The translations under genes and the position numbers were made by a program. Shown here one piece after another: positions 3,030 through 20,400 of a stretch of DNA of 20,953 nt; the stretch's first letter is position 1; every line of letters starts with the position of its first letter. The notes under the pieces are model-generated. The model was not told where the DNA came from and did no database searches. It worked only from the letters and a program-made list of their open reading frames with translations. This DNA is from a virus. The stretch lies in the IMG/VR virus record IMGVR_UViG_3300029258_003803, positions 1-20,953 of that record; one strand, written 5' to 3'.

Positions 3030-3141
3030 GGCGTGAGGCGTGAGGCGTGAGGCGTGATGCGTGGGGCGTGAGGTGTGGGGTGTGAGTGTGAGGTGTGAGG
3101 TGTGGGGTGTGAGTGTGAGGTGTGAGGTGTGAGGTGTGATG
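3019..3141 (+). repeat. Degenerate short tandem repeats built from GTGAGGC/GTGAGGT
   Basis: About 16 variants of a 7-bp unit (GTGAGGC, GTGATGC, GTGGGGT, GTGAGGT) lie between the helical-protein gene and the small terminase gene. The right half is rich in GAGGTG, which is itself a good anti-16S match, so the array also provides the ribosome binding site for the next gene. Similar units recur at 9784-9832, 11219-11238, 19230-19275 and 20675-20745. Confidence 0.85.
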
Positions 3142-3615: not shown

Positions 3616-3641
3616 AGAGGCTGGCCCGGGTCGGGCCCCGT

Positions 3642-5135: not shown

Positions 5136-5154
5136 TCAGGTCGAGGAGGGGTCA

Positions 5155-5496
5155 ATGGAGAAGCAGGTGTTCGATGAGCCGATTTGGGCGATTGTGGAGC
5201 TGATGGGGCGTCACGTGGTTGCCGGGGAGGTGTCGGAGGTGACGGTGGCGGGGGCGGGGATGCTGCGGGTGGACGTGCCGGCGGTGGACGGGTCGCCCGG
5301 GTGCACCAAGTTTCTCGGGGGGAGTGCAATTTACGCGATTACGCCGGTGGGGGAGGCTGAAGCGCGGGAGGCTATCCGGCGGCTGAAGGTGCGGCCGGTG
5401 CATATCTGGGTGGTGCCGGACCGGCCGGCGCTGCCCTCGTCGTCGCCGTCGCCGTCGCGGGCGACGGATCTGGACGTTGAGGATTGTGGGGTTTAG
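5155..5496 (+). CDS. Conserved phage-associated protein of unknown function (113 aa)
   Basis: ATG 5155 has GAGGAGGGG at 5142-5150 as ribosome site; an upstream ATG at 5122 lies in the same frame but is less well supported. The body reads WAIVELMGRHVVAGEVSE ... MLRVDVPAVDG ... KFLGGSAIYAITPVGEAEAREAIRR, a pattern seen in small proteins next to portal and terminase genes and sometimes mislabelled as acetyltransferase. It looks like a compact beta-rich domain. The tail is low complexity (SSSPSPS) ending DVEDCGV. The stop directly abuts the portal ATG, so the two are co-translated. The biochemical role is unknown. Confidence 0.7.
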   Translation: MEKQVFDEPIWAIVELMGRHVVAGEVSEVTVAGAGMLRVDVPAVDGSPGCTKFLGGSAIYAITPVGEAEAREAIRRLKVRPVHIWVVPDRPALPSSSPSPSRATDLDVEDCGV

Positions 5497-6831: not shown

Positions 6832-7058
6832 TGGAACGAGATTCTTCGCCTTCGCTACGCTTTGGCTCAGAATGACAATTTTCCAGGGTGGAACGAGATT
6901 CTTTGCCTTTGCTATGTTTTGGCTCAGAATGACAATTTTCCAGGGTGGAACGAGATTCTTTGCCTTTGCTATGCTTTGGCTCAGAATGACAATTTTCCAG
7001 GGTGGAACGAGATTCTTTGCCTTTGCTACGCTTTGGCTCAGAATGACAATTTTTCAGG
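6831..7058. repeat. 57-bp tandem repeat, four units, between portal and capsid genes
   Basis: Units start at 6831, 6888, 6945 and 7002, with only a few differences between them. Each contains AACGAGATTCTT...GGCTCAGAATGAC, a partial palindrome (ATTCT/AGAAT, GCC/GGC). The reverse complement (GTCATTCTGAGC...AAGAATCTCGTT) belongs to a dispersed repeat seen in many bacterial genomes, where it yields spurious 'CHSEPKRSEGEESR' peptides. It fills the whole space between the portal stop and the ribosome site of the capsid gene. Confidence 0.9.
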
Positions 7059-7067
7059 GAGGTTTTT

Positions 7068-9383
7068 ATGGTGGAAGAGGTTGAGCGGTTGGAGGGGGAG
7101 GCTGGCGCGGAGGGTCCGGATCTGGAGCGTGGGGATCTCGCGCGCGTGCACTCGGGCCGGCTGTTGCTCCAGCTGGAGCCGGTGGGCGGGGGCGTCAATC
7201 GGTCGGGCCGGCGGGAGTATGATTGCATCTTTTTGCAGCCGGGTCGGGTGATGATGGCCAACGGGGAGGAGAGTACCTGGTTGATCCCGGCGGATGTGGC
7301 CCAGGCGGCGGCGCCGCTCTTTGGTGAGGTCTCGTGTTACCTGGATCACCCGGATCAGGTGGGTTTCTGGGGCTCGCGGGGGGAGCCGAAGGTGCGCAAC
7401 CTGGCCGGGGTGACGTTCGATGCCCAGTGGTCGGAGGAGGATCGAGCGGTCGTTGGGGGTATCCGGTTGTATGACAAGGAGCCCGGGTCGCCCGGGGCGT
7501 TCGTTGGCCACCTGGTGGATCAGATACTGGCTGACAAGGAGACGGGATTGGAAGTTCCTTCGCTTGGCTTGTCAGCTGTTTTTTATCACGACTCGGTGTT
7601 CGACGAGGAGGCCGGTCTGAGGGTCACGACGGCTTTTCGAAAGATCGAGTCGGTTGATTTTGTCTATGCTGCCGGCGCGCGGGGGTACGTCCGCAAGGCG
7701 TTGGCTGCAATGGAGACCGGGGAGTGGCCTCGGTCTCGCTATCGCTTGGGGGCGTATCCCCAAAGGAGTGAAGCCATGTCAGAGGAAGTGAGGACTGCGG
7801 GGGGCGAGGGGAGTGCGCCTCCGGAGGAGGAAGCGCCGCGTGCGGAGCATTCGACGCAGAGATTTCAGCAGCTGTCGCCGGCGGTCGCGCCCGTGCTGCA
7901 GCAGGCCCAGGCCCAGCAAGAGCGGCCAGTGGACCTCGGTGCGGCGCTGGAGGCGATCCGCGGGGTGGCAGAGCGGATCGACCGGTTGGAGGGGCTGAGT
8001 GCGTCGGTGGAGCGTCTCGCCGGGCAGGTGGAGGTGTTGTCGCGGCCGGCTGCGGTGGCTGCGCCTGTGGCCGATCCGGAGCCGGAGCCCGTGCCTGTGC
8101 CGGCGGCGTCGGCGACACCGGCCGGCGACCTGGTCGTGGAGCGGCTGGACGGGCTGAGCGCGTCGGTGGAGCGGCTCGCCGGGCTGATGGCCGAGCGGGA
8201 GGCCGGGCAGACGGTCACCGGGATGGGCGATGCACCTCGAGGCGATGGTGGCCGGATCTCGCTGGGCCCGACGGGGCTGGAGCAGATGGAGGCGGCGGTC
8301 GACTGGATCTTTGGCGTGCCGGGCGCGTCGCTGCCGGTGCCTGATCTGCGGCGGACGGATCGGATTTACTATTTGCTGAGCGGTGATGGTAACTGGACTG
8401 GGGTGTTCAACGAGAGGGAGGCGTTGGCAACGGCGAATCCGACGACACTGCCGGGGTTGGCAGTCAATGCCATGAACAAGGTGATTGTGCCGCTCTACGA
8501 TCGCATGGGCTGGTATCGTTGGTATGAAAAGATTGTTGTCGTGCAGCCGACGGATGGGACGTTGCATGATATGGCCTGGTTGCAGTTTGGTGGGATTGGT
8601 GACCTGCCCATCGTAGCAGACGGGGCAGCATACACTGAGCTGACGGTGGCGGATAGCAAGGAAAGCGATTCGTTCATCAAGCGAGGTGGGTACGTGGGGA
8701 TCACGGAGAAGATGCTGAGGAACAGTGCCATTGCCGAGATACAGGCGATTCCCAAGGCGATGGTTTTGTCTTCGGTACAGACCCGGTCGGGTAGGATTGC
8801 GGGGCTCTTTACGGCTAGTGCCGGCGTTGGACCGACGTTGGACCAGGACAGCACGGCTCTTTTCCACAACGATCACGGGAACCTGGCCACCACGGCGTAT
8901 TCGTGGTCGGCGTGGAAGGCGGCCAGGATCGAGTGTGCCAAACAAACGGAGTTGGGGAGCTCAAAGCGGCAAGGTCTGTTTCCGCGGTACTGTCTGGTGC
9001 CGATCGATTTGTATGACGGGGCGATGAGCGATTTCGGGTATGGTGCGGGTCCCCAGGGGCAACCGGGGACGAGTGACTATCACGTCAATCCGTACGCTAT
9101 GGATCACCCGGATGACCCTCGGCCGGTCCCTCTCTGTGTGCCAGATTGGACTGACACGAACGATTGGGGCTATCTGGCGGATCCGATGGTGGCTCCCATC
9201 ATTCAAATGGCGTACGCCGACAATCCGGGCGGGGGGATCCATCCCCCTCCACAGCTGTATGTAGTCACCAGTAAGCTGGCCGGTTTGATGTTCACGAATG
9301 ATGTGCTGCCGATTAAGGTCAGGGATTACTGGGCTTATGGCGTGGCCACCTATCGGGGCATTGGGAAGCGGAATGTGAGTTAG
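7068..9383 (+). CDS. Fused prohead protease - scaffold - major capsid protein
   Basis: 771 aa, ATG 7068 behind GGGAGG. Residues 50-215 resemble a prohead maturation protease: a His in CYLDHPDQVG (His94), a Ser in VPSLGLSAVF (Ser165 or Ser169), and IESVDFVYAAGARG with Asp197. Residues 237 to about 390 are Ala/Glu/Pro-rich and helical with the duplicated motif RLxGLSASVERLAG, as in scaffolds. From about 395 (ISLGPTGLEQMEAAVDWIFGV) to the end is a globular domain fitting a HK97-fold capsid subunit. The protease would process the scaffold and release mature capsid. A strong internal ribosome site and ATG at 7776 (Met237) could give scaffold-capsid without protease. Protease-capsid fusions are known but uncommon; usually these are two or three genes. 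Confidence 0.82.
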   Translation: MVEEVERLEGEAGAEGPDLERGDLARVHSGRLLLQLEPVGGGVNRSGRREYDCIFLQPGRVMMANGEESTWLIPADVAQAAAPLFGEVSCYLDHPDQVGFWGSRGEPKVRNLAGVTFDAQWSEEDRAVVGGIRLYDKEPGSPGAFVGHLVDQILADKETGLEVPSLGLSAVFYHDSVFDEEAGLRVTTAFRKIESVDFVYAAGARGYVRKALAAMETGEWPRSRYRLGAYPQRSEAMSEEVRTAGGEGSAPPEEEAPRAEHSTQRFQQLSPAVAPVLQQAQAQQERPVDLGAALEAIRGVAERIDRLEGLSASVERLAGQVEVLSRPAAVAAPVADPEPEPVPVPAASATPAGDLVVERLDGLSASVERLAGLMAEREAGQTVTGMGDAPRGDGGRISLGPTGLEQMEAAVDWIFGVPGASLPVPDLRRTDRIYYLLSGDGNWTGVFNEREALATANPTTLPGLAVNAMNKVIVPLYDRMGWYRWYEKIVVVQPTDGTLHDMAWLQFGGIGDLPIVADGAAYTELTVADSKESDSFIKRGGYVGITEKMLRNSAIAEIQAIPKAMVLSSVQTRSGRIAGLFTASAGVGPTLDQDSTALFHNDHGNLATTAYSWSAWKAARIECAKQTELGSSKRQGLFPRYCLVPIDLYDGAMSDFGYGAGPQGQPGTSDYHVNPYAMDHPDDPRPVPLCVPDWTDTNDWGYLADPMVAPIIQMAYADNPGGGIHPPPQLYVVTSKLAGLMFTNDVLPIKVRDYWAYGVATYRGIGKRNVS
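7762..7778 (+). promoter_or_regulatory. Internal ribosome binding site and start codon inside the capsid fusion gene
   Basis: AAAGGAG at 7762-7768 lies 7 nt before an in-frame ATG (7776-7778), at the exact junction of the protease and scaffold parts. Starting here gives a 535-aa scaffold-capsid protein. This is as strong a site as any in the cassette. Confidence 0.65.
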
Positions 9384-9412
9384 TCGGGTAGTCGGTTGGT
9401 CGGGTAGGTTCA
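9384..9412 (+). repeat. Short 8-bp tandem repeat (TAGTCGGG type)
   Basis: Units of RRTTAGTC/GGGTAGTC/GGTTGGTC type directly follow the capsid stop. The same family recurs at 19332-19396 and 20612-20671. Confidence 0.7.
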
Positions 9413-9431
9413 ACTATAAGGAGATTGTGTC

Positions 9432-9785
9432 ATGTTGAGGAAGTTTGTTCACACTGTACACGTGCCCGGGACGGGGACGGATATGAGTGTTCGGTGGAAG
9501 GTGCCGTCGGATTGTACGCTGTTGCATGTCTCGGCCTGTACCTCGTCGGATGACAGTGCAAAGATGGAGATCGGTGATGCGAGTGATGCCGATGCTCATT
9601 TGACGTCGTCGGCGGTCGGGAGTGGGGCGAATGCAATTGTGGAGTTTGACAAGGATGATTTTGTCGGCACGGAGTTTCCCCGGCTGCAGGATGGGGATAC
9701 GTTGGTCATTACGGTTGATACGGATGGAGGTGTTTCCGGGACCGGCGATGATTTGACGCTGGTGCTGACGTTTGTTGAGGGGTAG
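9432..9785 (+). CDS. Small beta-rich protein, candidate head decoration/cement protein
   Basis: 117 aa, ATG 9432 with AAGGAG at 9418-9423. The sequence alternates hydrophobic and polar residues (FVHTVHVPGTGTDMSVRWKVPSDCTLLHVSAC; TLVITVDTDGGVSGTGDDLTLVLTFVEG), the pattern of a beta-sandwich, and has no signal peptide. A small beta protein right after the capsid gene is the usual place of decoration or cement proteins that clamp capsid subunits. The role is inferred from position and fold only. Its general style is shared with the gene at 12145. Confidence 0.55.
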   Translation: MLRKFVHTVHVPGTGTDMSVRWKVPSDCTLLHVSACTSSDDSAKMEIGDASDADAHLTSSAVGSGANAIVEFDKDDFVGTEFPRLQDGDTLVITVDTDGGVSGTGDDLTLVLTFVEG

Positions 9786-9832
9786 CGCGTGATGCGTGAG
9801 ACGTGATTCGTGAGACGTGATTCGTGGGGGCA
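9784..9832 (+). repeat. Short 7-bp tandem repeats (CGTGATT type)
   Basis: Units of CGTGATG, CGTGAGA and CGTGATT alternate. This is the same family as at 3019-3141 and 19230-19275. Confidence 0.7.
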
Positions 9833-9867
9833 GGCGTGAGGTCTGCCCCTGTGTGGAGGAGGTTGTC

Positions 9868-10230
9868 ATGGGTTTTTTGGATTCGATGGCGGAGGGGGCG
9901 GCGAGGATGGCGGAGTATGCGGTGGCTCAGCGGGTGCAGGTGCCGGTGGAAGAGTTGGGGCGGGCGTTGGCTGAGTTGGGGCTGGTGGGTGTGCCAGTGT
10001 ATAGCGCGCGGAAGTTGGAGGATGGTGGCATTGAGGTGGTGACTCGGTTCGGCGCGAAGGTCTGGCGGCCGGAGAAGCCGGCGGCGAAGAAGCGGGCCAC
10101 GAGGAAGCCGGTCACGAAGAAGCCGGCTTCGAAGCGCACGCGGTCCCGGTCCGGGTCGTCGACGGGTAGCAAGAAGGTTGAGGTAAAAGGAAAGGAGGCC
10201 GGAGGTGAGGTTCAGGCTGAGCAGGAGTGA
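9868..10230 (+). CDS. Hypothetical protein with histone-like basic tail (120 aa)
   Basis: ATG 9868 with GGAGGAGG at 9854-9861. The N-terminal part is a helical and beta domain (MGFLDSMAEGAARMAEYAV, VPVEELGRALAELGLVGVPVYSARKLEDGGIEVVTRFGAKVW). The C-terminal third, from about residue 70, is rich in Lys/Arg/Ala/Pro with repeated KKPA/RKPV/KKPAS steps, like the tail of H1-type or HU-extension proteins that bind DNA without sequence preference. It lies between capsid and fibre-like genes, so it may be a DNA-condensing internal head protein. The family is not recognised. Its end overlaps the start of the next gene by 26 nt. Confidence 0.65.
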   Translation: MGFLDSMAEGAARMAEYAVAQRVQVPVEELGRALAELGLVGVPVYSARKLEDGGIEVVTRFGAKVWRPEKPAAKKRATRKPVTKKPASKRTRSRSGSSTGSKKVEVKGKEAGGEVQAEQE

Positions 10231-11218
10231 TGGGTGGTTTCTCGTTGGGTTGGTTGGGATTTTGGTTGTTGTTGTGTTGGTGGTGGGGGGTGTGCAGCGG
10301 TGGGAGGCGTCCATCGATGAGGGGAATGAGATTGTTTCGCTGGGGGTGTCGCATTTCAGCGGGATACACGTTTCGGTGCCGACGGATGTGGCTACGGCGA
10401 CGCCAGGGCTGATGGTGGACTGTGCCGGGGTGGGCAACTGTTTCGAGATTCGGGACGGGGGTACGCCGGTGGCGCAGTGGGGCGACGGTGGGGCTTTTAC
10501 CGGGTCTGGTGCGCGGACGTTTTCCGGTCTGGTCAATGCTAACGGCGGGATCGCGGTCGACACATCGGCTTTCACGGTGGCGGATGCGACGGGGAACACG
10601 GTGGTCAGTGGGACGCTGGCGGTGTCGGGGACGTCGACGCTGGCCGGCCTGGCTAACGCCGATGGTGGGATCGCGGTGGACACATCGGCTTTTACCGTGG
10701 CGGATGCGACGGGGAACACGGTGGTCAGTGGGACGCTGACGGTGTCGGGGACGTCGACGCTGGCCGGCCTGGCTAATGCCGACGGCGGGATCGCGGTGGA
10801 CACATCGGCTTTTACCGTGGCGGATGCGACGGGGAACACGGTGGTTAGTGGGACGCTGGCGGTTAGTGATACCTCGACGCTGGCCGGGGGGCTGACGGTG
10901 AGTGCCGGTGGGCTGGATGTTGCCGGCGGGGTGTTTGAGATGAGTCACACTGAGATCACGAATTCGTACGATCTCACCCCGACTAGCACGTTGTACATTG
11001 TGAACTCGACGGGGGCGACGGTTATAACGCCGACTGCTTGCTCGAATTTGGGGCAGATGCTGTTTTTCTATGGTGACGACAATAACGGTGTTACCATAGC
11101 GAAGGCGAATTTGCTGACGACGGACGGGAATGATGTGGCCATTGACCAGTATGACTTGGTGGGTTTTATGTGCGTGACGACGAAGTGGGCGCTGATGTTT
11201 GAGGCGAATTTGCAGTGA
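10205..11218 (+). CDS. Membrane-anchored repeat protein, fibre/adhesin-like
   Basis: 337 aa from GTG 10205, behind AGGAGG (10195-10200). Basic residues (RFRLSRSDG) precede one transmembrane segment (about residues 11-29). The middle holds three near-identical 36-residue repeats (NADGGIAVDTSAFTVADATG..., about residues 110-215), then a shorter fourth-like remnant, and a beta-rich end (SNLGQMLFFYGDDNNGVTIA ... VTTKWALMFEANLQ). The repeat type is common in trimeric fibre shafts and surface adhesins. A membrane anchor is odd for a virion fibre and suggests a host-surface protein or a virion protein crossing a membrane. The repeats are also nearly identical in DNA (units about 108 bp), so recent duplication is likely. 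Confidence 0.65.
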   Translation: MRFRLSRSDGWFLVGLVGILVVVVLVVGGVQRWEASIDEGNEIVSLGVSHFSGIHVSVPTDVATATPGLMVDCAGVGNCFEIRDGGTPVAQWGDGGAFTGSGARTFSGLVNANGGIAVDTSAFTVADATGNTVVSGTLAVSGTSTLAGLANADGGIAVDTSAFTVADATGNTVVSGTLTVSGTSTLAGLANADGGIAVDTSAFTVADATGNTVVSGTLAVSDTSTLAGGLTVSAGGLDVAGGVFEMSHTEITNSYDLTPTSTLYIVNSTGATVITPTACSNLGQMLFFYGDDNNGVTIAKANLLTTDGNDVAIDQYDLVGFMCVTTKWALMFEANLQ

Positions 11219-11257
11219 TCCGTGATGCGTGATGCGTCTACGGCGGAGCGATGGCCG

Positions 11258-11590
11258 GAGCCGGGGGTTGCCTGCGGGGTGGATCCCCGGCTCGGTAAGG
11301 GTCACGGTGGGGTGGTGGAGCGAACCTCAAGGCGGTGCACGAGTTTGTGTCTCGTCTCTAGGTCGCTAGGGGGGGCGCGTTTGTCGCTGGGCGTCGACGG
11401 GGACAACGGGGGTGTGTTTGAAGTCAGGGGGCTTTGTTATGGGTGTCGCCGGGTCCTTCGACCGCGGGAAGGCTGCGTGTAGCACCCGTCTGCGCGTCTT
11501 TGGATCTAGTTTTTTCGTGAGTTTCTAGTTCATTCTCGAGGGTGCCCGATGGCTGAGGGAGCTGGTGCCTTGCTTTGGTGGGTGCTGGTG
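11258..11590 (+). ncRNA. Candidate structured non-coding RNA, copy B
   Basis: There is no convincing gene between 11219 and 11624. Ordered blocks match copy A: 11322-11355, 11381-11402, 11455-11487 and 11541-11569. The hairpin arms change in pairing-preserving ways. GGTGCC/GGTGCC (11541-11546 with 11564-11569) replaces GGCGCC/GGCGCC at the same 23-nt spacing. CCTTC/GAAGG replaces CCTTC/GGAGG. A separate 9-bp inverted repeat, GAGCCGGGG (11258-11266) with CCCCGGCTC (11285-11293), lies upstream where copy A has its 13-bp one. It sits inside the structural cassette, 35 nt ahead of the caspase-like gene. Confidence 0.55.
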
Positions 11591-11624
11591 AATTTTCTCA
11601 GTAAAAATCCAGGAGGAGGGTGCT

Positions 11625-12155
11625 GTGAAGGTGTTGGCGATGTGTTGCCAGGAGTTTAGATGGGGGATGCGGAAGGTGGCGGGGGTGGAGCCGGTGTTGG
11701 CGCCGCCTATCCGTCTGGAGACGTTTAAGCCTGTCTTCCTGGAAGGCTATGGTTTGTTGATGTTCAAGCTCCACGGTCTAATTGACCAGCCATTTTGGTA
11801 TGGAACTGGCTGGACGACGGCGATGGGGGCGGAGCAGGTACGCCGGGCGGATCTAAAAGGTGTGATGGTATTTGCAATGTGTTGTTATACGCCGGAGAGT
11901 CCGATGCTGGAGGCGTTTCTCGATGCGGGGGCAAGTGTGATAGCCGGGCGGGGGGAGAATTTGGCCAGGCGGAGGGGGGTTCACGGGGTAGATTTGTTGG
12001 GTAGGGCTTTCAGGCAGGTGTACACCTCGACGCGGCGGCCGTGGATGTCGCTTCACCTGGCTAAGATGAGGGTACGGGCGGCAGGGTTGGATCGGACGGG
12101 GCGGGATGCGTTGGGGTTCAGGCTCTATGAAAGGATTGGCAGTCATGGGAGTTGA
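11625..12155 (+). CDS. Caspase/CHAT-like (clan CD peptidase-fold) protein
   Basis: 176 aa, GTG 11625 with AGGAGGAGGG at 11611-11620. Two hydrophobic strands carry a His-Gly (YGLLMFKLHG, His50) and a Cys (LKGVMVFAMCCY, Cys86 or Cys87), followed by MLEAFLDAGASVIAGRGEN. This matches the HG...C...'alldaGA.aViG' order of CHAT, gingipain (C25) and caspase-like peptidases, which cleave after a His/Cys dyad. It is shorter than most CHAT domains (250+ aa), so it may be a minimal or inactive form. No sensor domain is fused. It lies between the RNA candidate and small beta proteins. Whether it is a virion protein, a processing protease or a defence effector is open. Confidence 0.55.
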   Translation: MKVLAMCCQEFRWGMRKVAGVEPVLAPPIRLETFKPVFLEGYGLLMFKLHGLIDQPFWYGTGWTTAMGAEQVRRADLKGVMVFAMCCYTPESPMLEAFLDAGASVIAGRGENLARRRGVHGVDLLGRAFRQVYTSTRRPWMSLHLAKMRVRAAGLDRTGRDALGFRLYERIGSHGS

Positions 12156-12534
12156 TCGCATTCAATTCAGTACGGGGGCGGCGGTGGGGAGCGCGGGGGC
12201 GGCGACGTCGACGGGGTGCTGTCCGCATGTGGCGGGGCGGGTGTTGGCGGTTCACGTGGCGTATGTGGGATCGCCGCCGGCGGGGACGACGGATGTAACG
12301 CTGGAGGATGAGGCCGATCCGGCGGGGGAGAAGATTGTTAGTTTGGTGGATGGGGCGACGGATGTCAAGGTCTGTCCTCGGCGTAAGGTGCAGGATAATC
12401 TCGGTAGTGATGTCACGTTCGATGGAAGTAACGAGGTATACGAGCCGTATGTGGTGCATGGCCGGTTGAAGGCGACGATTGACCAGGTGAACAGTGGGGA
12501 TTCGGCGACGGTGACGGTGTGGGTGGAGGTGTGA
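12145..12534 (+). CDS. Small beta-rich phage-like protein (129 aa)
   Basis: ATG 12145 (MGVDRIQFSTGAAVGSAGAATS) overlaps the preceding stop by 11 nt, with AAGGA at 12131-12135 as ribosome site. An Ala/Gly-rich N-terminus leads into alternating beta strands (VLAVHVAYVGSPPAGTTDVTLEDEAD; GRLKATIDQVNSGDSATVTVWVEV). The style resembles the decoration-like gene at 9432 (ending TLVLTFVEG), so the two may be related structural proteins. No specific family is recognised. Confidence 0.65.
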   Translation: MGVDRIQFSTGAAVGSAGAATSTGCCPHVAGRVLAVHVAYVGSPPAGTTDVTLEDEADPAGEKIVSLVDGATDVKVCPRRKVQDNLGSDVTFDGSNEVYEPYVVHGRLKATIDQVNSGDSATVTVWVEV

Positions 12535-12535
12535 G

Positions 12536-12778
12536 GTGGCGACCTATGGGCGGGTGGCCAGCACGGGGGACGGCGGTATCGTTATTGAGGTGGATGGGGT
12601 GCGGATCACGATCGGCGATCTGAGTTCGTACGACACGGCGGCGGCGTTGAAGGCGGAGGCGGAGCGGCAGGCCGGCGGGTCGTTGGATGATCTCTATTTC
12701 CACGTCAACAGGGATGGGTCGGTGGTGATCGCTACGGGGTCGGCGCCGGCGGTCTGGCCGGAGGATGAGGGGGAGTAA
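12536..12778 (+). CDS. Small hypothetical protein (80 aa)
   Basis: GTG 12536 begins one base after the preceding TGA, and GGTGGAGGTG upstream serves as ribosome site. The protein has a short beta start (IVIEVDGVRITIGDL), a helix (DTAAALKAEAERQAG) and a beta hairpin (YFHVNRDGSVVIATG). It is acidic. It is co-translated with its neighbours in the fibre region; no family is recognised. Confidence 0.6.
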   Translation: MATYGRVASTGDGGIVIEVDGVRITIGDLSSYDTAAALKAEAERQAGGSLDDLYFHVNRDGSVVIATGSAPAVWPEDEGE

Positions 12779-12781
12779 GCT

Positions 12782-13480
12782 GTGGGTGAGGTTTTCAATG
12801 TGACCCACAATGCGGGCAATTTGTCCGAGTATGATGCGACGGCGACGGATGGGGGGGATCTGTCGGCGGACGCGGCGGCGGCGATGGCCGGCAGTGGCTA
12901 TGGCCTGCAGGCGGTGGTTGATGATACGAGCGCGTTGTATGGCCAGGTGAATGTTTCTCTCGCATCGGCGGCGTTCCGGTATCGGTTTTATTTTGACCCC
13001 AACGGCGTTTCGATGGGGAACGGGGATGAGTTCCGGCTGGTGGATTTCTGCGATGGGGGGAGCGTCCGTCAGTTTGTGGATGTGGAGTACTCGGGTAGTG
13101 CGTACAACATTCGGGCGCAGGTTGTGGACGATGTGGGGGGGTGGGATACGACGGGCAATCAGGCGATCACGGATGCGCCGCATTATATCGAGGTGTTGGT
13201 GGAGTATGCCAGCTCTAATGTGGCGAGTGACGGGCGGGTGACGCTCTGGATCGACGGGTCGCAAGAGGGACAGATTACGGGGCTGGATATATACGATGTG
13301 TCGAAGCCTGACCGGGCGCGGATGGGGGCGGTGCAGGGGCTGGAGGGGACGACGTCGGGGACGATTTATTTGGACGAGTTTGTGCTGCGGGATGACGACA
13401 CGGCGATCGGGCCGGCGTCGTACGGGGGCAGTGTTGCGCCGGTGGCGGCGCATCATTACCGGTTGAGGAGGGCGGCCTGA
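12782..13480 (+). CDS. LamG/concanavalin-like jelly-roll protein
   Basis: 232 aa, GTG 12782 with GGGGGAG at 12769-12775. The sequence order fits a laminin-G/concanavalin-like lectin sandwich: FRYRFYFDPNGVSMGNGDEFRLVDF, then VRQFVDVEYSGSAYNIRAQV, APHYIEVLVEYASS, GRVTLWIDGSQEGQITGLDI, and GTIYLDEFVLRDDDTAIG, where IYLDEFVL is typical of the last strands. Such domains bind glycans in phage tail or host-surface proteins. The end overlaps the next start (TGATG). A receptor- or glycan-binding accessory is the best guess. Confidence 0.65.
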   Translation: MGEVFNVTHNAGNLSEYDATATDGGDLSADAAAAMAGSGYGLQAVVDDTSALYGQVNVSLASAAFRYRFYFDPNGVSMGNGDEFRLVDFCDGGSVRQFVDVEYSGSAYNIRAQVVDDVGGWDTTGNQAITDAPHYIEVLVEYASSNVASDGRVTLWIDGSQEGQITGLDIYDVSKPDRARMGAVQGLEGTTSGTIYLDEFVLRDDDTAIGPASYGGSVAPVAAHHYRLRRAA

Positions 13481-14772
13481 TGCAGTGGTTGAGGCAATCG
13501 ACGGCTGTGACGATCAAACTCGGTCCGTTTCTGGATGAGGGCGACGGGAAAACGGCGGAGACGGGTCTGACGATTTCGCAGGCGGATATCCGGTTGAGTA
13601 AGAATGGGGGGGCGTTTGCGCAGACTCATAATGCGGCGGGGGCGACGCACGATGAGAATGGGTGGTATGGGGTTCCTCTGGATACGACGGATACGGGTAC
13701 GTTGGGGATGTTGGTGGTGGCGGTGCATGAGAGCGGGGCGCTGCCGGTGTGGCAGGGGTTCATGGTTGTGCCGGCTAATGTGTGGGATAGTATGTTTGGG
13801 TCGGATCTGCTCCAGGTGGATGTGCATTCGATCGATGACGACGAAACGGCGGCGGACAATTTGGAGGCGGATTACGATGGGACGGGGTATGCCAAGTCGG
13901 CGTCGACTGTTGGGACGGTGACGGATTTGACGAATGCGAATCCGAGCGCGGGGGATATTGCGGATGCGGTGTGGGACGAGGCGTCGACGGGGCACGTGGA
14001 TGCCGGCAAGGCGGGGGCGCAGCTGTGGACCGACGTCGATGCGATCAAAGCCAAGACGGACAACCTGCCGGCGGACCCGGCGGACGACAGCGACATCGAT
14101 GCGCAGCTGGCCACGATAGACGCGGTGGTCGACGCGATCAAGGCCAAGACGGACAACCTGCCGGCGGACCCGGCGGACGACAGCGACATAGACGCGCAGT
14201 TGGCCACGATAGACGCGGTGGTCGACGCGATCAAGGCCAAGACGGACAACCTGCCGGCGGACCCGGCGGACGACAGCGACATAGACGCGCAGCTGGCCAC
14301 GATAGACGCGGTGGTCGATGCGATCAAGGCCAAGACGGACAACCTGCCGGCGGACCCGGCGGACGATAGCGACATCGATGCGCAGTTGGCCACGATAGAC
14401 GCGGTGGTCGATGCGATCAAGGTGGTGACTGATGCTCTCACGGCTGCGGATATCGCCGATGCGGTGTGGGATGAGGCGACGGCGGGTCACCAGGCTGCGG
14501 GGACGGCGGGGAAGGCGCTGACGGACGGGATCACGGCGGGGAGTGGGGCGATCACGTTTGTGTATACGCTCACCTCGTCGGTGGATGGGGCAGGGGTTGC
14601 GGATGCGGATGTGTGGGTGACGGGTGACGTAGGTGGTGGCAACGTGCTGGCCAGTGGGACAACGGATGCCAGTGGCCAGGTGACGTTTTATCTGGATGCG
14701 GGGACGGTGTATGTGTGGCGGCAGAAAAGCGGCTGGAATTTTGTTAATCCGGATGTGGAGACGGTGGGTTAG
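13480..14772 (+). CDS. Fibre-like protein with four 31-residue repeats
   Basis: 430 aa, ATG 13480 overlapping the previous TGA. The N-terminal domain (STAVTIKLGPFLDEGDGKTAETGLTISQADIRLSKNGG) resembles baseplate/fibre attachment domains of the BppU type. Residues about 185-315 hold four near-perfect copies of a 31-residue unit starting AIKAKTDNLPADPADDSD and including LATIDAVVD, a heptad-friendly shaft or coiled coil. The C-terminus has a beta-sandwich (VYTLTSSVDGAGVADADVWVTGD ... GQVTFYLDAGTVYVWRQKSGW) like carboxypeptidase-regulatory or Ig-like domains. It most likely forms a trimeric fibre or spike. The repeats are almost identical in DNA (93-bp units). Confidence 0.72.
   Translation: MQWLRQSTAVTIKLGPFLDEGDGKTAETGLTISQADIRLSKNGGAFAQTHNAAGATHDENGWYGVPLDTTDTGTLGMLVVAVHESGALPVWQGFMVVPANVWDSMFGSDLLQVDVHSIDDDETAADNLEADYDGTGYAKSASTVGTVTDLTNANPSAGDIADAVWDEASTGHVDAGKAGAQLWTDVDAIKAKTDNLPADPADDSDIDAQLATIDAVVDAIKAKTDNLPADPADDSDIDAQLATIDAVVDAIKAKTDNLPADPADDSDIDAQLATIDAVVDAIKAKTDNLPADPADDSDIDAQLATIDAVVDAIKVVTDALTAADIADAVWDEATAGHQAAGTAGKALTDGITAGSGAITFVYTLTSSVDGAGVADADVWVTGDVGGGNVLASGTTDASGQVTFYLDAGTVYVWRQKSGWNFVNPDVETVG
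14040..14425 (+). repeat. 93-bp tandem coding repeat in the fibre-like gene
   Basis: Four units of 93 bp differ at only a few, mostly synonymous, positions (GAC/GAT, CTG/TTG, ATA/ATC). Low divergence implies recent expansion or ongoing homogenisation, so copy number may vary between strains. Confidence 0.9.
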
Positions 14773-14773
14773 T

Positions 14774-15055
14774 ATGAGGTTGGTTGCGCTTGTTGCGGTG
14801 GTGGCGGGTGCGGTGGCGGGGGTGGAGGTGGTTGTTGGTGTTGCGTCGCAGTACGATCCCGGTGTGATGCGCCGGGTCGTGGAGACGCGGCAGGGGGGGG
14901 CGGTGGCGTGTCCGCTGCCGCGGGTTTTGCCGGCGGTGGATGGGTTTGTGGCGGTGCGGGAGTGTGGGCGGATTGGGGAGGTGTGGTGGAGGTGGGTTAT
15001 TTGACGGCGCTGCGGTGGGGGGTGGTGGGGAGGGGGGTGCGGGTGGAGGTGGTGA
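14774..15055 (+). pseudogene. Broken RlpA/3D-like (double-psi barrel) cell-wall protein
   Basis: ATG 14774 starts a signal-like N-terminus (MRLVALVAVVAGAVAGVEVV) followed by ASQYDPGVMRRVVETRQ and LPAVDGFVAVRECGRIGEVWW. This matches the AS.YdpG.M ... DGyVAV.dC..iGe series of RlpA/3D-like proteins linked to cell-wall binding or lysis. The frame then stops at 15004. In another frame, from about 14986, the sequence continues VVEVGYLTALRWGVVGRGVRVEVV, which fits the usual C-terminal end. The middle (expected WxxFLVADC-type segment) is missing. So a deletion with frameshift has removed part of the gene. As a 76-aa product it would lack the domain core. Alternatively an assembly error caused the break. 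Confidence 0.55.
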
Positions 15056-15152
15056 GAACCACTGAGGGGATGAGGGCACTGAGGGGTAGAATCACTGAGG
15101 CACTGAGTGATCACTGAGGGGGTGGGGGGTAGAATCACTGAGGGCAATGAGG
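15056..15152 (+). repeat. Imperfect repeats of ACTGAGGG type
   Basis: Repeated CACTGAGG(G) units and two GGGGTAGAATCACTGAGG copies lie between the broken RlpA-like gene and the next promoter. This is a third short-repeat family in the window. No gene is seen here. Confidence 0.65.
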
Positions 15153-15172
15153 AAATTGCTGGGGGGATAGTT

Positions 15173-15194
15173 GCGTATAATAGGTGGTATACGC
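15173..15194 (+). promoter_or_regulatory. Promoter -10 overlapped by palindromic operator, upstream of the connector-like gene
   Basis: A consensus -10 TATAAT (15176-15181) overlaps the inverted repeat GCGTATA (15173-15179) / TATACGC (15188-15194). The -35 is poor (AAATTG at 17 nt or TTGCTG at 14 nt), so an activator may be needed. It is 36 bp ahead of the next start codon and would give a separate transcript for the last structural genes. Confidence 0.5.
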
Positions 15195-15216
15195 AGTAGT
15201 TGTGTAGGGGGTCGTT

Positions 15217-17133
15217 ATGGCGACGGGTTCGGGTACGGGGACGCCGGCGGGGGGGTCGGGGAGTGCGACGTTGACGTCTCTCCGGCAGCGGGTGCTGACG
15301 CAGGTGACGGCGGCGGCGGGGGGGCCGGTGGATGAGGCGGTGACGAAGAGCAGTTTGTCGCTGTCGACGATGCGGGAGCGGGCGCGGGTGGAGCTGCAGC
15401 TGAGTGGGCGGTCGTCGGGTGCGGAGGTGGAGGTGGCGACGGCGAGCAGTGAGACGCTGACGACGTTGCGGGATCGGGTGGAGATCGCCCTGCAGGATTC
15501 GGGGAATGCGATCTGGGCGACGGGGGATTTGGACGAGGCGATCCGGCAGACGTTGGAGCAGTATAGCCGGGTGCGGCCGCAATCGGGGATTGCGACGATC
15601 ACGCTGAGCAGCACCGGGCGGGAGGTGGATATTTCGTCGGTGTCGGGGCTGCTGCGGGTGGAGAAGGTGTGGTGTCCGTACGATTCGAGCAGTCCCTCGT
15701 ATCCGCCGAACTGGCGGAATTTTCGGGTGTGGCCGGGGTCGATTCTTTTTGTGGATGACAGTGACGAGCCGCAGAGTGGGGAGAAGGTTCGAATCTGGTA
15801 TACCAAGGAGCAAGCGCTGAATGGTCTCGATTCGGCGACGTCGACGACGTTTCCGGTGGAGGATGAGGCGTTTGTTGTGGCCGGCGCTGCGGCGTTTGCG
15901 GCGCGGTTTCGGGCGATCGAGATCGCGGAGCAGGCGAACGTGGATGCGAAGGTGTTTGACCGCCTGCAGGCGTGGGCGACGTCGGCGATGGCTGAGTTCG
16001 AGGAGGGGCTGCGGGGACGCCGGCGGGCGATCGGCGGGGGGGACTATGATGAGGAGGCGCTGGACGAGGCGATCCGGCAGGCGTTGGAGTTGTACAGCCG
16101 GTATAAGCCAGATGAGGCGATCACGACGGTCGCGCTGACGGCCAACGGGCGGGAGATCGATATTTCGTCGGTGTCGGGGTTGGTGCGGGTGGTGCGGGTG
16201 TGGTGGGATTATGATTCGAGCAGTCCGGGGCATCCGCCGAACTGGCGGCATTTTGAGGTGTGGCCGGGGGGGGTGCTCTATGTCGACGATCAGAGTACGC
16301 CGCAGAGCGGCGACACGGTCAGGATTTGGTACACGAAGGAGCAGACGCTGAACGGCCTCGACGGGGCGTTGGCGACGACGTTTCCGGTGGACGATGAGGG
16401 GTTTTTGGTCAGTGGCGCGGCGGCGCTGGCGGCGCGGTTTACGGCGGCGCGTCACGTGGGCAAGGGGGATTTTTCGCATCTGGTGTCGTGGGCGGATGCA
16501 GAGTTGAAGTGGTTTAGAAGGGGACTGTGGACGAAGGCCCGGTTGAGTTATGCGTATGCGTACGACCAGGACGATCTCGACGAGGCGATCCGGTGGGCGC
16601 TGGCCAGGTATACGGAGGTTAGCCCGGATGTGGCGGTCACGACGGTGGCGCTGGGCAGCAGTGGGCGAGAGGTGGATATCTCGTCCATTACGGATTATTT
16701 GGAGGTTCAGCGGGTGTGGCGGGGTTATGACTCGTCGGACCCGGAGTATCCGCCGGTGTGGTGTGATTTCGAGTTGTGGCCGGGGGATGTTTTGTTCATC
16801 GACAGTGAGAGCGAGCCGCAGTCGGGCGATGTGGTCCGGGTGTGGTACACGAAAAAGCGGGCGGTGAGCGGGTTGGATGGGGCGTCGGAGACGACGCTGC
16901 CGGATGAGGATGAGACGTTGGTCGTGGTGGGGGCGAGTGGGTTTGTGGCGCAGGAGCGGGTGCAGGAGGAGGATCGAAGGAGTGTGCCGCGCAAGCTGCG
17001 GGAGTGGGCGGAGGCGCGGTTGAGGGAGTTTGAGCGGGGGTTGGCGAAGGTGGCGCGCCGGCAGGCGGCGAAGTATAGCGGGGTGGCCACGGGCCCGCAG
17101 CTGGACCGGTGGGATAGGGAGGGGAGGTGGTGA
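15217..17133 (+). CDS. Triplicated connector/adaptor-like domain protein
   Basis: 638 aa, ATG 15217. Three tandem copies start with LDEAIRQ-type helices near residues 104, 282 and 453. Each copy then has (G)REVDISS, a V.RVW...YDSS.P.YPP.W motif, WPG..LF.D, PQSG..VR(I/V)WYTK, GLDGA..TTFP and a final helix rich in Ala. The order of helix, a beta part with 'dISs..gl.rV..v', 'Ytk' and TT-P resembles small head-tail connector (gp6-like adaptor) proteins, normally about 150-200 aa with one copy. The three copies are clearly diverged, so the fusion is old. In a 12-fold neck ring, four such proteins would supply 12 domains; that is inference. A helical N-terminal region with coiled-coil-like repeats (ATLTSLRQRV, STMRERARVEL, TTLRDRVEIAL) precedes it. 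Confidence 0.6.
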   Translation: MATGSGTGTPAGGSGSATLTSLRQRVLTQVTAAAGGPVDEAVTKSSLSLSTMRERARVELQLSGRSSGAEVEVATASSETLTTLRDRVEIALQDSGNAIWATGDLDEAIRQTLEQYSRVRPQSGIATITLSSTGREVDISSVSGLLRVEKVWCPYDSSSPSYPPNWRNFRVWPGSILFVDDSDEPQSGEKVRIWYTKEQALNGLDSATSTTFPVEDEAFVVAGAAAFAARFRAIEIAEQANVDAKVFDRLQAWATSAMAEFEEGLRGRRRAIGGGDYDEEALDEAIRQALELYSRYKPDEAITTVALTANGREIDISSVSGLVRVVRVWWDYDSSSPGHPPNWRHFEVWPGGVLYVDDQSTPQSGDTVRIWYTKEQTLNGLDGALATTFPVDDEGFLVSGAAALAARFTAARHVGKGDFSHLVSWADAELKWFRRGLWTKARLSYAYAYDQDDLDEAIRWALARYTEVSPDVAVTTVALGSSGREVDISSITDYLEVQRVWRGYDSSDPEYPPVWCDFELWPGDVLFIDSESEPQSGDVVRVWYTKKRAVSGLDGASETTLPDEDETLVVVGASGFVAQERVQEEDRRSVPRKLREWAEARLREFERGLAKVARRQAAKYSGVATGPQLDRWDREGRW

Positions 17134-17230
17134 GCCCTCTCCCCCGGCCCCTCTCCCAAAGGTCTGGGAGAGGGGGGTGGGCGGTGAGCCCTCTCCCCTG
17201 GCCCCTCTCCCAAAAGTCTGGGAGAGGGGG
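17129..17230. repeat. Two 54-bp palindromic 'CCCTCTCCC' repeats
   Basis: Units start at 17129 and 17183. Each folds as CCCCTCTCCC paired with GGGAGAGGGG around an AAA-GTCT loop. This is a widespread dispersed bacterial repeat that yields spurious 'GEGPGERA' peptides. The stop codon of the connector-like gene lies inside the first unit. It might act as a transcription or RNA-end signal but has no T-run. Confidence 0.85.
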
Positions 17231-17268
17231 ATGTGGTTAGTGAGTCGTGAGTTGTGGGAGGTGAGGTG

Positions 17269-17502
17269 ATGGGTAGTGGTGGTAGGCATTTGAGTACGCA
17301 GCGGATGTTGGCTGTGTTGGCGGGTAAGATGTGCGACCTCGATCTGCGGGGGTATCTTTGCTGGGTGGAGAATGGGGAGTCGTTGACGGCGTTTTTGGAG
17401 CCGGAGGCGCAGGGGCCGGTGCAGGAGCGGTTGACGAATGCGCGGCGGTTGGGGGAGGCAGCGATGGCGTTTGTGGAGGCGGTGGAGGAGATTGTGCGGT
17501 GA
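17269..17502 (+). CDS. Small hypothetical helical protein (77 aa)
   Basis: ATG 17269 with GGGAGGTGAGG upstream (17257-17266). The sequence MGSGGRHLSTQRMLAVLAGKMCDLDLRGYLCWVENGESL is followed by a charged helix (VQERLTNARRLGEAAMAFVEAVEEIVR). It overlaps the next gene by GTGA, so they are translationally coupled. It could be a chaperone or small tail component for the following tail gene. No family is recognised. Confidence 0.65.
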   Translation: MGSGGRHLSTQRMLAVLAGKMCDLDLRGYLCWVENGESLTAFLEPEAQGPVQERLTNARRLGEAAMAFVEAVEEIVR

Positions 17503-19229
17503 GGGTGGTCGATGCGACGTTGTTGAGTGGGCAGCTGCGGCTGGCCGGGGAGCCGGCGCGGTCGCTGGTGGTGGGGACGGCGCCGGATACGGCGGATGTG
17601 TCGGCGTATGTGGTGGCGTACGATTATGAGGAGGTGGGGGATAGCGATTCCGGCTTGACGGTGCGGTTGGATAATTCGGGGGGGACGTTCAATTCGTTGA
17701 CCGGTGACCTGGCCAACGTCACGCAGGGGGCGGCGGTGGAGTTGAAGCGGGGGGTGCGGGTGGAGGGGACAAGTTACCTGGCGGAGCTCCCCCGGACGTG
17801 GGTCGAGTCGATCGGGTATGAGCACCTGGGCGGGGTGAGTTTGTGTGTGCTGGAGTGCATCGATTGGCGGGGGAGGCTGGCGCGGTGGCGGGCTGCATCG
17901 GAGCAGACGTGGTCGTCGACGGCGGCGTCGACGATCCTGGAGTGGTTGCTGACGCAGGTGGGGTTGACGCGGGCGTCGGGGACGATGACTGCGTTGACGC
18001 TGGATTATGCGGTGCGGCTGCGGGAGTCGGGGGAGGCGGCGCTGGATCGGTTGGTGGGCAAGATGCCGGAGTATCTTTACGCCGGGTTGGATGGGGAGGT
18101 CAAGTGGCGGGAGATCGATGGGGGGGATGTTTCGGTTTACACGTTTGGGTGGAATGCGAGCCACGCGGTGCTGCTGGTCGAGGCGGCGGCTTCGGCGTGG
18201 CAGGTGAATAGTGTGAGTGTGTTGGGCCGGGCGGGGAAGAGTGGGTTGGCGGAGGATGCGACGCAGATCGCGGCGGTGGGGAGGCGGCGCTGGACGATCT
18301 ATGATGATGATCTGGACGGTGACGCCGAGTGCGCGCAGCGCGCCCAGGCGGAGTTGGATTTGTACCAGGCGGAGGCGACGGAGGCGACGATTGTGTGCCG
18401 GCCTTGTCACGGGTTGGAGTTGTTCGATGTGGTGACGGTGGCCTCGCCACCATGGGGTGGGTTGGACGTGGTGGGGCGGGTGATTCGGTTTCGGGAGGAG
18501 TGGAATATGAATGGAAGGTGGCACCAGGTGATCGGGTTGGGGCGGGTGAAGGATAAGGATCCGGGGAACCAGCCGGCGAAAAAGTCGGCGAGGAAGGGGC
18601 GGCAGAGCCGCCGGCGTATCTGGCGGTGTCCGGTTTTGCGGCGGGAGCCGTCGGATCCGTGGTTGGTGCCGGTGGGGGGGATTGTGATGTGGTCGGGGGC
18701 GTCGGACGATGTGCCGGCGGGGTGGGTGTTGTGCGATGGGACGAATGGGACGCCGGATCTGCGGGGGCGGTTTATTGTGGGGGCGGGGGATGCTTACACT
18801 TCGGGGGATGTGGGGGGGGAGGAGACGAGCGACCTGCGGCACACGCATGGGCCGGGGTCGCTGGCGACGGATTCGGACAGCCACACGCACGGGCCGGGGT
18901 CGCTGGCGACGGATTCGGACAGCCACAAGCATGGGTTTGCTCATGACATTGCTACGGGGAGCGAGTCGGCGGCGGTGACGGTGGCATCGGGGTCGGGGGC
19001 GGAGGCGGCGCGGGGTGGGAGTTTGCATCACGTGCACACGGTGTCGGGGTCGACGTTGGAGTCGGAGATGGAGAGCGATGGTCACAGTCACGACGTGGAT
19101 AGTGGGGCAACGGCGAGCGACAGTCATGGGCACGATGTGGATAGTGGGGTGACGGGGAGTGGGGGGTCGGCGGGGCAGGAGAATCGGCCGCCGTTTTATG
19201 CGTTGGCGTTTATTATGCGGGTGGGGTGA
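17499..19229 (+). CDS. Tail protein with C-terminal collar domain and His-rich tip
   Basis: 576 aa, GTG 17499 overlapping the preceding TGA, with GGAGGAG at 17483-17490. Residues 1 to about 350 are a beta/helix domain (TVRLDNSGGTFNSL, TWVESIGYEHLGG, DWRGRLARWRAASEQTW) that resembles baseplate-hub/tail-associated proteins. A basic linker (KKSARKGRQSRRR) follows. From about residue 388 a tail-collar domain begins: VPVGGIVMWSG...PAGWVLCDGTNGTPDLRGRFIVGAG. The end has repeated H-x-H motifs (HTHG, SHTHG, HVHT, HSHD, HGHD) and ENRPPFYALAFIMRVG, the usual C-terminus of collar/short-fibre proteins, whose HxH motifs bind metal in trimeric tips. It is the probable receptor-binding device. A 60-bp duplication repeats GPGSLATDSDSH at about 18856-18927. 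Confidence 0.78.
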   Translation: MRVVDATLLSGQLRLAGEPARSLVVGTAPDTADVSAYVVAYDYEEVGDSDSGLTVRLDNSGGTFNSLTGDLANVTQGAAVELKRGVRVEGTSYLAELPRTWVESIGYEHLGGVSLCVLECIDWRGRLARWRAASEQTWSSTAASTILEWLLTQVGLTRASGTMTALTLDYAVRLRESGEAALDRLVGKMPEYLYAGLDGEVKWREIDGGDVSVYTFGWNASHAVLLVEAAASAWQVNSVSVLGRAGKSGLAEDATQIAAVGRRRWTIYDDDLDGDAECAQRAQAELDLYQAEATEATIVCRPCHGLELFDVVTVASPPWGGLDVVGRVIRFREEWNMNGRWHQVIGLGRVKDKDPGNQPAKKSARKGRQSRRRIWRCPVLRREPSDPWLVPVGGIVMWSGASDDVPAGWVLCDGTNGTPDLRGRFIVGAGDAYTSGDVGGEETSDLRHTHGPGSLATDSDSHTHGPGSLATDSDSHKHGFAHDIATGSESAAVTVASGSGAEAARGGSLHHVHTVSGSTLESEMESDGHSHDVDSGATASDSHGHDVDSGVTGSGGSAGQENRPPFYALAFIMRVG

Positions 19230-19275: not shown

Positions 19276-19290
19276 TGAGAGGTAGTGGGT

Positions 19291-19330: not shown

Positions 19331-19331
19331 G

Positions 19332-19396
19332 GGTAGTCGGTTAGTCAATTAGTCAATTAGTCAATTAGTCGGTTAGTCGGGTGGTCGGGTGGTCGG
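19332..19396 (+). repeat. 8-bp tandem repeats (AATTAGTC/GGTTAGTC/GGGTGGTC)
   Basis: Eight consecutive 8-bp units separate the cassette terminator from the CRISPR array. The same family is found at 9384-9412 and beyond the CRISPR leader promoter at 20612-20671. Confidence 0.85.
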
Positions 19397-19462
19397 GGGC
19401 TTTGGTAGGGGGGCGATTTTTTTGAGTGTGGGCTGTTTGACAGGACAAAATTGAAATTGGTG

Positions 19463-20400
19463 GTCTCAATCCCCTATCAAGCGGGGCAATGTTTCTGACC
19501 AGTGGTCTCGATCCAGACGTAGTCGCATCCTGCACCGTGTCTCAATCCCCTATCAAGCGGGGCAATGTTTCTGACTGGAGAGAACAGGTGCTCATCAAGT
19601 GAAAGTCCCAAGTCTCAATCCCCTATCAAGCGGGGCAATGTTTCTGACGAGGCGAAGAGCCTCCTGGAGAACAACTCCTTCCCCAAGTCTCAATCCCCTA
19701 TCAAGCGGGGCAATGTTTCTGACTCGGCCAGTCCGGCCCGCCAAACAGCCCCGCCAATGGTGTCTCAATCCCCTATCAAGCGGGGCAATGTTTCTGACCC
19801 GGAGGATGTGCGCTCGCAATCCTCATAGTTGCGAGTCTCAATCCCCTATCAAGCGGGGCAATGTTTCTGACAAGACGCCACTGGCGAGACCTGCCAGTGG
19901 TGTATCCACCAGGTCTCAATCCCCTATCAAGCGGGGCAATGTTTCTGACCCGAAGGCGAAAGTTGCGCCTTCGGGCAGGGGGGTATCCCGTCTCAATCCC
20001 CTATCAAGCGGGGCAATGTTTCTGACGAGAAAGAAATGGGAATTTTAAGGGCCTTCTGGGTCCAAGTCTCAATCCCCTATCAAGCGGGGCAATGTTTCTG
20101 ACCAGTGCTCGGTCAAGGTAATTGGCCGCTGTGGGGCCGAGTCTCAATCCCCTATCAAGCGGGGCAATGTTTCTGACCAGAGAACCCGGACCCTCTGGTC
20201 AAAAGGGAGGGCTTTGGTCTCAATCCCCTATCAAGCGGGGCAATGTTTCTGACGAGGCCAATGGGTAAATGGCCTCGATGGATTAGTTGAGTCTCAATCC
20301 CCTATCAAGCGGGGCAATGTTTCTGACTCCTTCAATGAAAAGCCCGACCCCAGGAGATCTCTAGTCTCAATCCCCTATCAAGCGGGGCAATGTTTCTGAC
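19463..20400 (-). CRISPR. CRISPR array: 13 repeats of 37 nt, 12 spacers of 36-41 nt
   Basis: Repeats start at 19463, 19539, 19612, 19687, 19762, 19835, 19913, 19990, 20066, 20141, 20217, 20291 and 20364, and look identical (GTCTCAATCCCC...GTTTCTGAC on plus). A CCCC/GGGG stem lies inside. The reverse complement ends in ATTGAGAC, close to the ATTGAAAC handle left at crRNA 5' ends in many type I-B and type III systems, so the crRNA sense is the minus strand. A promoter at 20592-20621 supports this. Full identity of all repeats gives no degenerate end. No cas gene lies in the window, so the type is unknown. No spacer matches the rest of this window by eye. Six spacers contain perfect hairpins. 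Confidence 0.98.

What the first reader, a model, noticed from the sequence alone, without database searches (positions are those of the whole stretch)
19500..20363. Half of the CRISPR spacers contain perfect hairpins
Six of 12 spacers carry perfect inverted repeats: 19878-19885/19893-19900 (8 bp, extendable to 11 with one wobble), 19950-19958/19966-19974 (9 bp), 20254-20260/20270-20276 (7 bp), 19802-19807/19819-19824 (6 bp, plus an alternative TCGCAA/TTGCGA), 20178-20182/20193-20197 (5 bp, 8 with the adjoining repeat), and 19649-19653/19659-19663 (5 bp). By a rough count a 7-bp perfect arm is expected in about 2% of random spacers, so three in 12 is striking. The arms differ in sequence, so this is selection for structure, not a repeated source. 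Terminator- or structured-RNA-derived spacers, including uptake by a reverse transcriptase-Cas1, would explain it.
Basis: partly seen in the sequence, partly recalled or inferred. Interest (0 to 1): 0.7.

Follow-up and report, generated by a model that had tools for sequence, protein, structure and literature searches.

The report
Type III CRISPR array favouring hairpin spacers
Several of the stored virus fragments in this CRISPR memory fold back on themselves; the same excess appears in arrays with the same kind of repeat from other genomes, and fits a known habit of type III CRISPR systems of picking up DNA that folds into hairpins.

Summary
All six inverted repeats are at the stated coordinates. 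"Half of the spacers" is weak: stems of 5 bp or more occur in 6 of 12, against 4.5 expected. The long stems are a real excess: three of at least 7 bp against 0.34 in dinucleotide shuffles (P=0.007), two of at least 8 bp against 0.09.

The effect replicates. The repeat belongs to a family found beside type III-A loci whose adaptation genes are Cas1 plus a CRISPR-associated primase-polymerase (CAPP). In 1011 such spacers, 43 have stems of at least 8 bp against 6.6 expected from real DNA; 368 spacers near type III-A loci without detected CAPP give 10 against 2.4; 409 spacers of other arrays, taken as type I, give 2 against 2.5. The subgroup with the window's kind of repeat is strongest (grouped after the fact).

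RT-Cas1 is not supported for these loci; terminators explain at most 14 of 101 hairpins. Best explanation: type III adaptation prefers folded single-stranded DNA, as reported for Streptococcus thermophilus (review PMC9048733). No cas gene was recognised in the window, so its type III assignment rests on the repeat. No protospacer was found.

The parts
19463..20400 (-). CRISPR array: 13 identical repeats (minus-strand reading GTCAGAAACATTGCCCCGCTTGATAGGGGATTGAGAC) and 12 spacers
   Evidence: exact repeats; weak Rfam CRISPR-DR10 match to every repeat on the minus strand, 25 bits, below the gathering score of 39. Minus-strand transcription is inferred from the ATTGAGAC end, the Rfam strand and the arrangement in related loci.
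19878..19900 (.). spacer 6 hairpin, 8 bp perfect arms 19878-19885/19893-19900, loop 7
   Evidence: single-spacer shuffle P=0.0065
19950..19974 (.). spacer 7 hairpin, 9 bp arms 19950-19958/19966-19974, loop 7, flush with the spacer end
   Evidence: shuffle P=0.0005
20254..20276 (.). spacer 11 hairpin, 7 bp arms 20254-20260/20270-20276, loop 9, flush with the spacer end
   Evidence: shuffle P=0.0085
19802..19824 (.). spacer 5 inverted repeat, 6 bp
   Evidence: shuffle P=0.066, not significant alone
20178..20197 (.). spacer 10 inverted repeat, 5 bp (8 bp with the adjoining repeat)
   Evidence: shuffle P=0.69: chance level
19649..19663 (.). spacer 3 inverted repeat, 5 bp
   Evidence: shuffle P=0.57 for the stem: chance level
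3136..19229 (+). phage module beside the array: terminase, portal, protease-capsid fusion, tail fibre; no cas gene recognised
   Evidence: the window is an IMG/VR virus record

Best explanation
The array belongs to a type III-A CRISPR system, probably one whose adaptation module is Cas1 plus a CAPP primase-polymerase, and its hairpin spacers are the footprint of a type III adaptation preference for single-stranded DNA that folds back on itself. Likely steps: the coding strand of an invader is exposed as single-stranded DNA; a fold-back supplies the duplex that Cas1 needs; the fragment is integrated without a PAM; selection for RNA targeting then keeps the orientation in which the crRNA is antisense to the mRNA. 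Shown here: the hairpin excess, its replication in related arrays, its absence from the compared non-type-III arrays, the antisense coding bias and the enrichment at start codons. Inferred: that the window's own machinery is of this type, that the substrate is single-stranded DNA, and that the effect arises at acquisition.
For: Repeat family GTCAGAAACAYYGCCCCG..GGGGATTGAGAC in Desulfamplus and Syntrophobacteraceae. Desulfamplus G004 has Csm-type effector genes, CARF effectors, PrimPol, TPR and Cas1 around such arrays (Cas10 and Cas6 there are my reading of the translations). CAPP matches occur in 51 of 395 genomes of that phylum; in the fetched loci that hold arrays the repeats are of this general kind and CAPP sits next to Cas1; G1111 holds Cas10a, CAPP, Cas1 and the array in one locus. 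Hairpins over shuffles in 738 CAPP-adjacent spacers: >=7 bp 61 vs 12; >=8 bp 32 vs 2.7; >=9 bp 17 vs 0.56. Against real DNA at >=8 bp: CAPP set 43 vs 6.6, other type III-A 10 vs 2.4, other arrays 2 vs 2.5. SD-ATG starts: 36 antisense vs 5 sense to the crRNA in the CAPP set, 15 vs 5 in other type III, 1 vs 2 in controls. The target strand keeps an open frame, hairpin spacers included. Review PMC9048733 reports for RT-free type III-A in S. thermophilus a preference for ssDNA stem-loops, enrichment 10-50 bp after start codons and coding-strand bias.
Against: No cas gene recognised in the window and its host is unknown. A slightly relaxed repeat pattern was not found in genome contigs, nor the repeat within 3 mismatches in 380 genomes of the G001 phylum, where CAPP was also not found at E<=1e-40 in 400. 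The excess differs among arrays: G005 is borderline and many smaller type III arrays show none. By mean folding z-score, type III arrays without CAPP do not differ from the controls. The control arrays were taken as type I from repeat and Cas1 form, not from full typing of their loci. No protospacer was found for window or G1111 spacers, so the state of the source DNA was not observed.
Confidence: 0.58

Rival explanations
1. PrimPol snap-back: the CAPP polymerase (or another) extends a folded-back 3' end of the prespacer, so that the second arm is newly made and absent from the invader.
For: The group with the window's kind of repeat and a CAPP has most long stems: >=9 bp 24/623, against 1/388 in the other CAPP group, 3/368 in type III-A without detected CAPP and 0/409 in controls. 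Stems end flush with the crRNA-3' end of the spacer more often than in natural DNA (ratios 2.3-2.6 vs 1.4 at 5 bp). CAPPs prime and extend DNA and displace strands (PMC8211822).
Against: The flush excess is as large in type III-A arrays without CAPP. Hairpin spacers keep an open reading frame on the target strand as often as others (2.4% vs 2.6% closed). Overlapping spacers in G003 carry the same hairpin more than once. Most stems lie inside the spacer.
Confidence: 0.13
2. Uptake of structured RNA or terminators, including by an RT-Cas1.
For: Some spacers are antisense to intrinsic-terminator-like sequences, notably in G1111; spacers are antisense to mRNA. G040, a genome with a related repeat, has RT and Cas1 genes side by side on another contig.
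Against: In the loci where array and adaptation genes lie together, no RT was found beside Cas1; only 14 of 101 hairpins have an A- or T-run, in equal orientations; no clear strand difference in folding. In Thermus type III the strand bias arises from selection (PMC7515739).
Confidence: 0.08
3. Survivorship: acquisition is unselective, and spacers whose crRNA folds on itself are kept because they are weakly active and cause less self-damage.
For: Type III adaptation needs no PAM and takes host sequence (PMC9048733).
Against: The DNA search of the G1111 genome with its own array returned only matches on the array's contig, in and just beyond the array (sensitivity for 36-nt matches unknown). 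The coding bias and the SD-start enrichment suggest functional spacers.
Confidence: 0.1
4. In the window itself, chance: 12 spacers were singled out because they looked structured.
For: P is only about 0.002-0.008 for 12 spacers, before allowing for the choice of array.
Against: Independent arrays of the same repeat family show the same excess.
Confidence: 0.11

Closest known systems
Type III-A adaptation in Streptococcus thermophilus (Zhang et al., as reviewed in PMC9048733)
   Same: Preference for foldable DNA, enrichment near start codons, bias to the coding strand, no RT, spacers centred near 36 nt
   Different: There seen in laboratory acquisition on plasmids and host; here seen in natural arrays, and strongest where a CAPP accompanies Cas1. 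The original paper was not held, so this rests on the review.
CRISPR-associated primase-polymerase (CAPP) modules (PMC8211822)
   Same: PrimPol next to Cas1 in type III loci, best PADLOC match PDLC01101
   Different: The words hairpin, snap and inverted do not occur in the main text of that paper; the link to spacer structure is proposed here by association only
RT-Cas1 type III systems (for example Marinomonas mediterranea)
   Same: Type III, PAM-free, transcript-related spacer choice
   Different: No RT beside Cas1 in the loci where these arrays and adaptation genes lie together

Membership tests
CRISPR array | regular identical repeats with unique spacers | tested here: met
   13 identical repeats, 12 different spacers of 36-41 nt
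Type III-A CRISPR system (for the window) | Cas10/Csm genes with the array | not testable with these tools
   none of the ten window proteins scanned is a cas gene; the record is a 20,953-base virus contig and its host was not identified
Type III-A CRISPR system (for the window) | repeat of the family found at Csm loci | tested here: met
   alignment score 31-32 (window repeat 37 nt) with repeats of G002, G003 and G005; G004 and G1111 loci carry Csm/Cas10 genes. Resemblance, not proof of type
Type III spacers | crRNA antisense to coding strand | tested here: inconclusive
   clear for the pooled spacers; no SD-ATG match in the 12 window spacers
CAPP-associated adaptation (for the window) | PrimPol next to Cas1 | not testable with these tools
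   inferred from the repeat only; relatives show it
RT-Cas1 adaptation (for the window) | RT fused to or beside the Cas1 that serves the array | not testable with these tools
   no cas genes in the window; in related loci with array and Cas1 together no RT was found, but G040 has RT and Cas1 side by side on a contig without an array

The most novel reading that the evidence does not exclude
A particular Cas1-CAPP module, the one that uses repeats of the window's kind, actively captures or makes hairpin prespacers, with the primase-polymerase as the cause; its arrays would then be a natural record of a primase-polymerase acting in CRISPR memory formation.
Probability: 0.2. Interest if true: 0.75.

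Novelty: new variant of a known kind. Interest (0 to 1): 0.5.

Why it matters
How type III systems without a reverse transcriptase obtain their prespacers, and what CAPP does in that step, are open questions. A strong hairpin footprint that can be read from sequence alone, and that differs between adaptation-module groups, lets genomes be sorted into those that do and do not show it and points to modules worth testing.

Tried and rejected
Relaxed repeat pattern in genome contigs: no hit. Repeat within 3 mismatches in 380 genomes, and CAPP in 400 genomes, of the G001 phylum: none. Spacer 7 and 11 cores in viral contigs: only the sister contig. Window and G1111 arrays against phages and plasmids: no match. 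Stems continuing into the repeat: no excess. RNA-strand folding asymmetry: not clear. Tail-fibre relatives, to decide whether the array is phage or host DNA: only the sister contig. Original paper on S. thermophilus type III-A acquisition: not held. The idea that CAPP alone explains the excess: rejected, because a second CAPP group shows little of it.

Full report
Observation. Dinucleotide shuffles show that the 5-bp cases are ordinary (6 seen, 4.5 expected, P=0.27), while three stems of at least 7 bp (0.34 expected, P=0.007) and two of at least 8 bp (0.09 expected, P=0.0045) are not. Natural DNA has more stems than shuffled DNA; against it P is about 0.002 to 0.008. A contig from another IMG/VR record carries the same 12 spacers and is not an independent case.

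What the array is. Read on the minus strand the repeat is GTCAGAAACATTGCCCCGCTTGATAGGGGATTGAGAC, ending in ATTGAGAC, which looks like a crRNA handle; Rfam CRISPR-DR10 matches it weakly on the minus strand, below the gathering score. The window is a virus record with a phage structural module, and none of the ten proteins scanned is a cas gene. Whether the array is on the phage or in flanking host DNA is not settled. A pattern for the repeat ends found close relatives in Desulfamplus and Syntrophobacteraceae, and a class-wide search found the family in 10 of 389 genomes. In Desulfamplus G004 the arrays lie among Csm-type genes with Cas1, a TPR protein and a PrimPol that PADLOC calls an adaptation polymerase. 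PrimPol matches of this family occur in 51 of 395 genomes of the phylum. In the fetched loci that hold arrays, the PrimPol adjoins Cas1 and the repeats are of this general kind. In G1111, Cas10a, CAPP, Cas1 and the array share one locus. I infer that the window's array belongs to such a system.

Replication. In 273 spacers of the repeat family, stems of at least 9 bp number 8 against 0.27 in shuffles; in 409 spacers of other arrays, whose repeats and Cas1 genes look like type I, 0 against 0.21. In 738 further CAPP-adjacent spacers: at least 7 bp 61 vs 12, at least 8 bp 32 vs 2.7, at least 9 bp 17 vs 0.56. Type III-A loci in genomes without a CAPP match at the threshold gave 368 spacers with 10 vs 1.2 at 8 bp. 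Against natural DNA of the fetched loci, in G+C bins, for stems of at least 8 bp: CAPP set 43 vs 6.6, other type III-A 10 vs 2.4, other arrays 2 vs 2.5, window 2 vs 0.06. Splitting the CAPP set by Cas1 similarity and repeat kind, done after seeing the per-array numbers, puts the excess mainly in the group with the window's kind of repeat: at least 9 bp 24/623 against 1/388 in the other CAPP group, 3/368 in type III-A without CAPP and 0/409 in the controls. Removing the strongest array (G1111) leaves 16/519. Spacers within one array are not fully independent.

What the hairpin spacers come from. They are mostly not terminators: 14 of 101 have an A- or T-run at the stem, 7 in each orientation. 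On the strand targeted by the crRNA, all three frames are closed in 2.4% of hairpin spacers and 2.6% of the rest, against about 10% in shuffles, so the sources are mainly coding. SD-ATG start sites occur antisense to the crRNA in 36 of 1023 CAPP and family spacers and sense in 5; 15 and 5 in other type III; 1 and 2 in the controls. Overlapping spacers point to natural sources, among them a repeated element in G003 and terminator-like sequences in G1111. Stems end flush with the crRNA-3' end of the spacer more often than in natural DNA in all type III groups, not in the controls. On the target strand this is a hairpin at the 5' end with a 3' single-stranded tail.

Reverse transcriptase. In G005, G010 and G337 no RVT_1 match was found, and in G002, G003, G004 and G210 the RVT_1 matches lie away from the listed arrays and their cas1 genes. 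The type III-A loci without CAPP that I inspected show a standalone Cas1 and no frame with the RT motif nearby (a crude motif test). G040 differs: its three-repeat array is on one contig, and another contig has an RT followed by a small Cas2-like frame and Cas1, with no array on it. So RT-based uptake is not supported where it could be checked, but a related repeat in one genome may be served by an RT module.

Interpretation. A review of type III adaptation (PMC9048733) reports that RT-free type III-A of S. thermophilus, unlike type II-A, prefers single-strand origins, oriT and other stem-loop regions, is enriched 10-50 bp after start codons and favours the coding strand, explained by folded single-stranded DNA as substrate. 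The natural arrays studied here show the same three marks. In Thermus type III, acquisition was from both strands and the strand bias arose from selection (PMC7515739), so the antisense orientation here may be selection. CAPPs prime and extend DNA on single strands and bind Cas1 and Cas2 (PMC8211822), which makes a role in such capture plausible, but CAPP presence alone does not predict the excess.

Limits. The type III assignment of the window is by repeat only. The search for CAPP in the phylum of G001 found none, and if the host lies there the CAPP part would not apply. Control arrays were few (six arrays, four genomes). No protospacer was found, so capture and synthesis are not separated directly. 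I chose thresholds and groups while looking at the data; the large contrasts are robust to this, the small ones are not.

Noticed in passing
window 19323-19416 and 20604-20757: The array is bracketed on both sides by the same simple-repeat families (8-nt units of the GTCAATTA/GTCGGTTA kind on both sides; 7-nt GTGATTCGTGATGCG-like units at 20674-20757 and near 19230-19280).
   Followed up: no
window 19463-20400: A CRISPR array without recognised cas genes on a phage-like contig; the sister contig ends at nearly the same place, so phage or host origin is open.
   Followed up: partly
window about 6850-7050: Several near-identical units containing TTTGGCTCAGAATGACAATTTT at regular spacing between the portal and capsid genes.
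   Followed up: no
window 13900-14440: The protein at 13480-14772 contains about four near-identical copies of IDAVVDAIKAKTDNLPADPADDSDIDAQLAT.
   Followed up: no
L178, L179, L183, L184, L023/L034, L265, L283 arrays: Several overlapping type III spacers agree except in their last one to three bases, which suggests untemplated or mis-copied end bases.
   Followed up: partly
L018/L035 (Desulfamplus G003): Five spacers come from variants of one repeated element (..CTGCACTGCTTTTTAAAGGTTCAAGCATAACCTT..); outside the arrays only one site with 2 mismatches to its core was found in the G003 genome.
   Followed up: partly
L184 (G1111): Several spacers target a set of similar terminator-like sequences, some followed by ribosome-binding sites (GTGAACAAAAAAAGCGCAC..), as if from one family of elements.
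   Followed up: partly
L077 7864-9223 (G004): The CAPP gene of this Desulfamplus genome is split into two open frames, so it may be broken or hold a frame error; G004 spacers show no hairpin excess.
   Followed up: no
L096 8382-11010 (G040 contig C155): RT, a small Cas2-like frame and Cas1 in a row on a contig without an array, in a genome that also carries a short array with a related repeat.
   Followed up: partly
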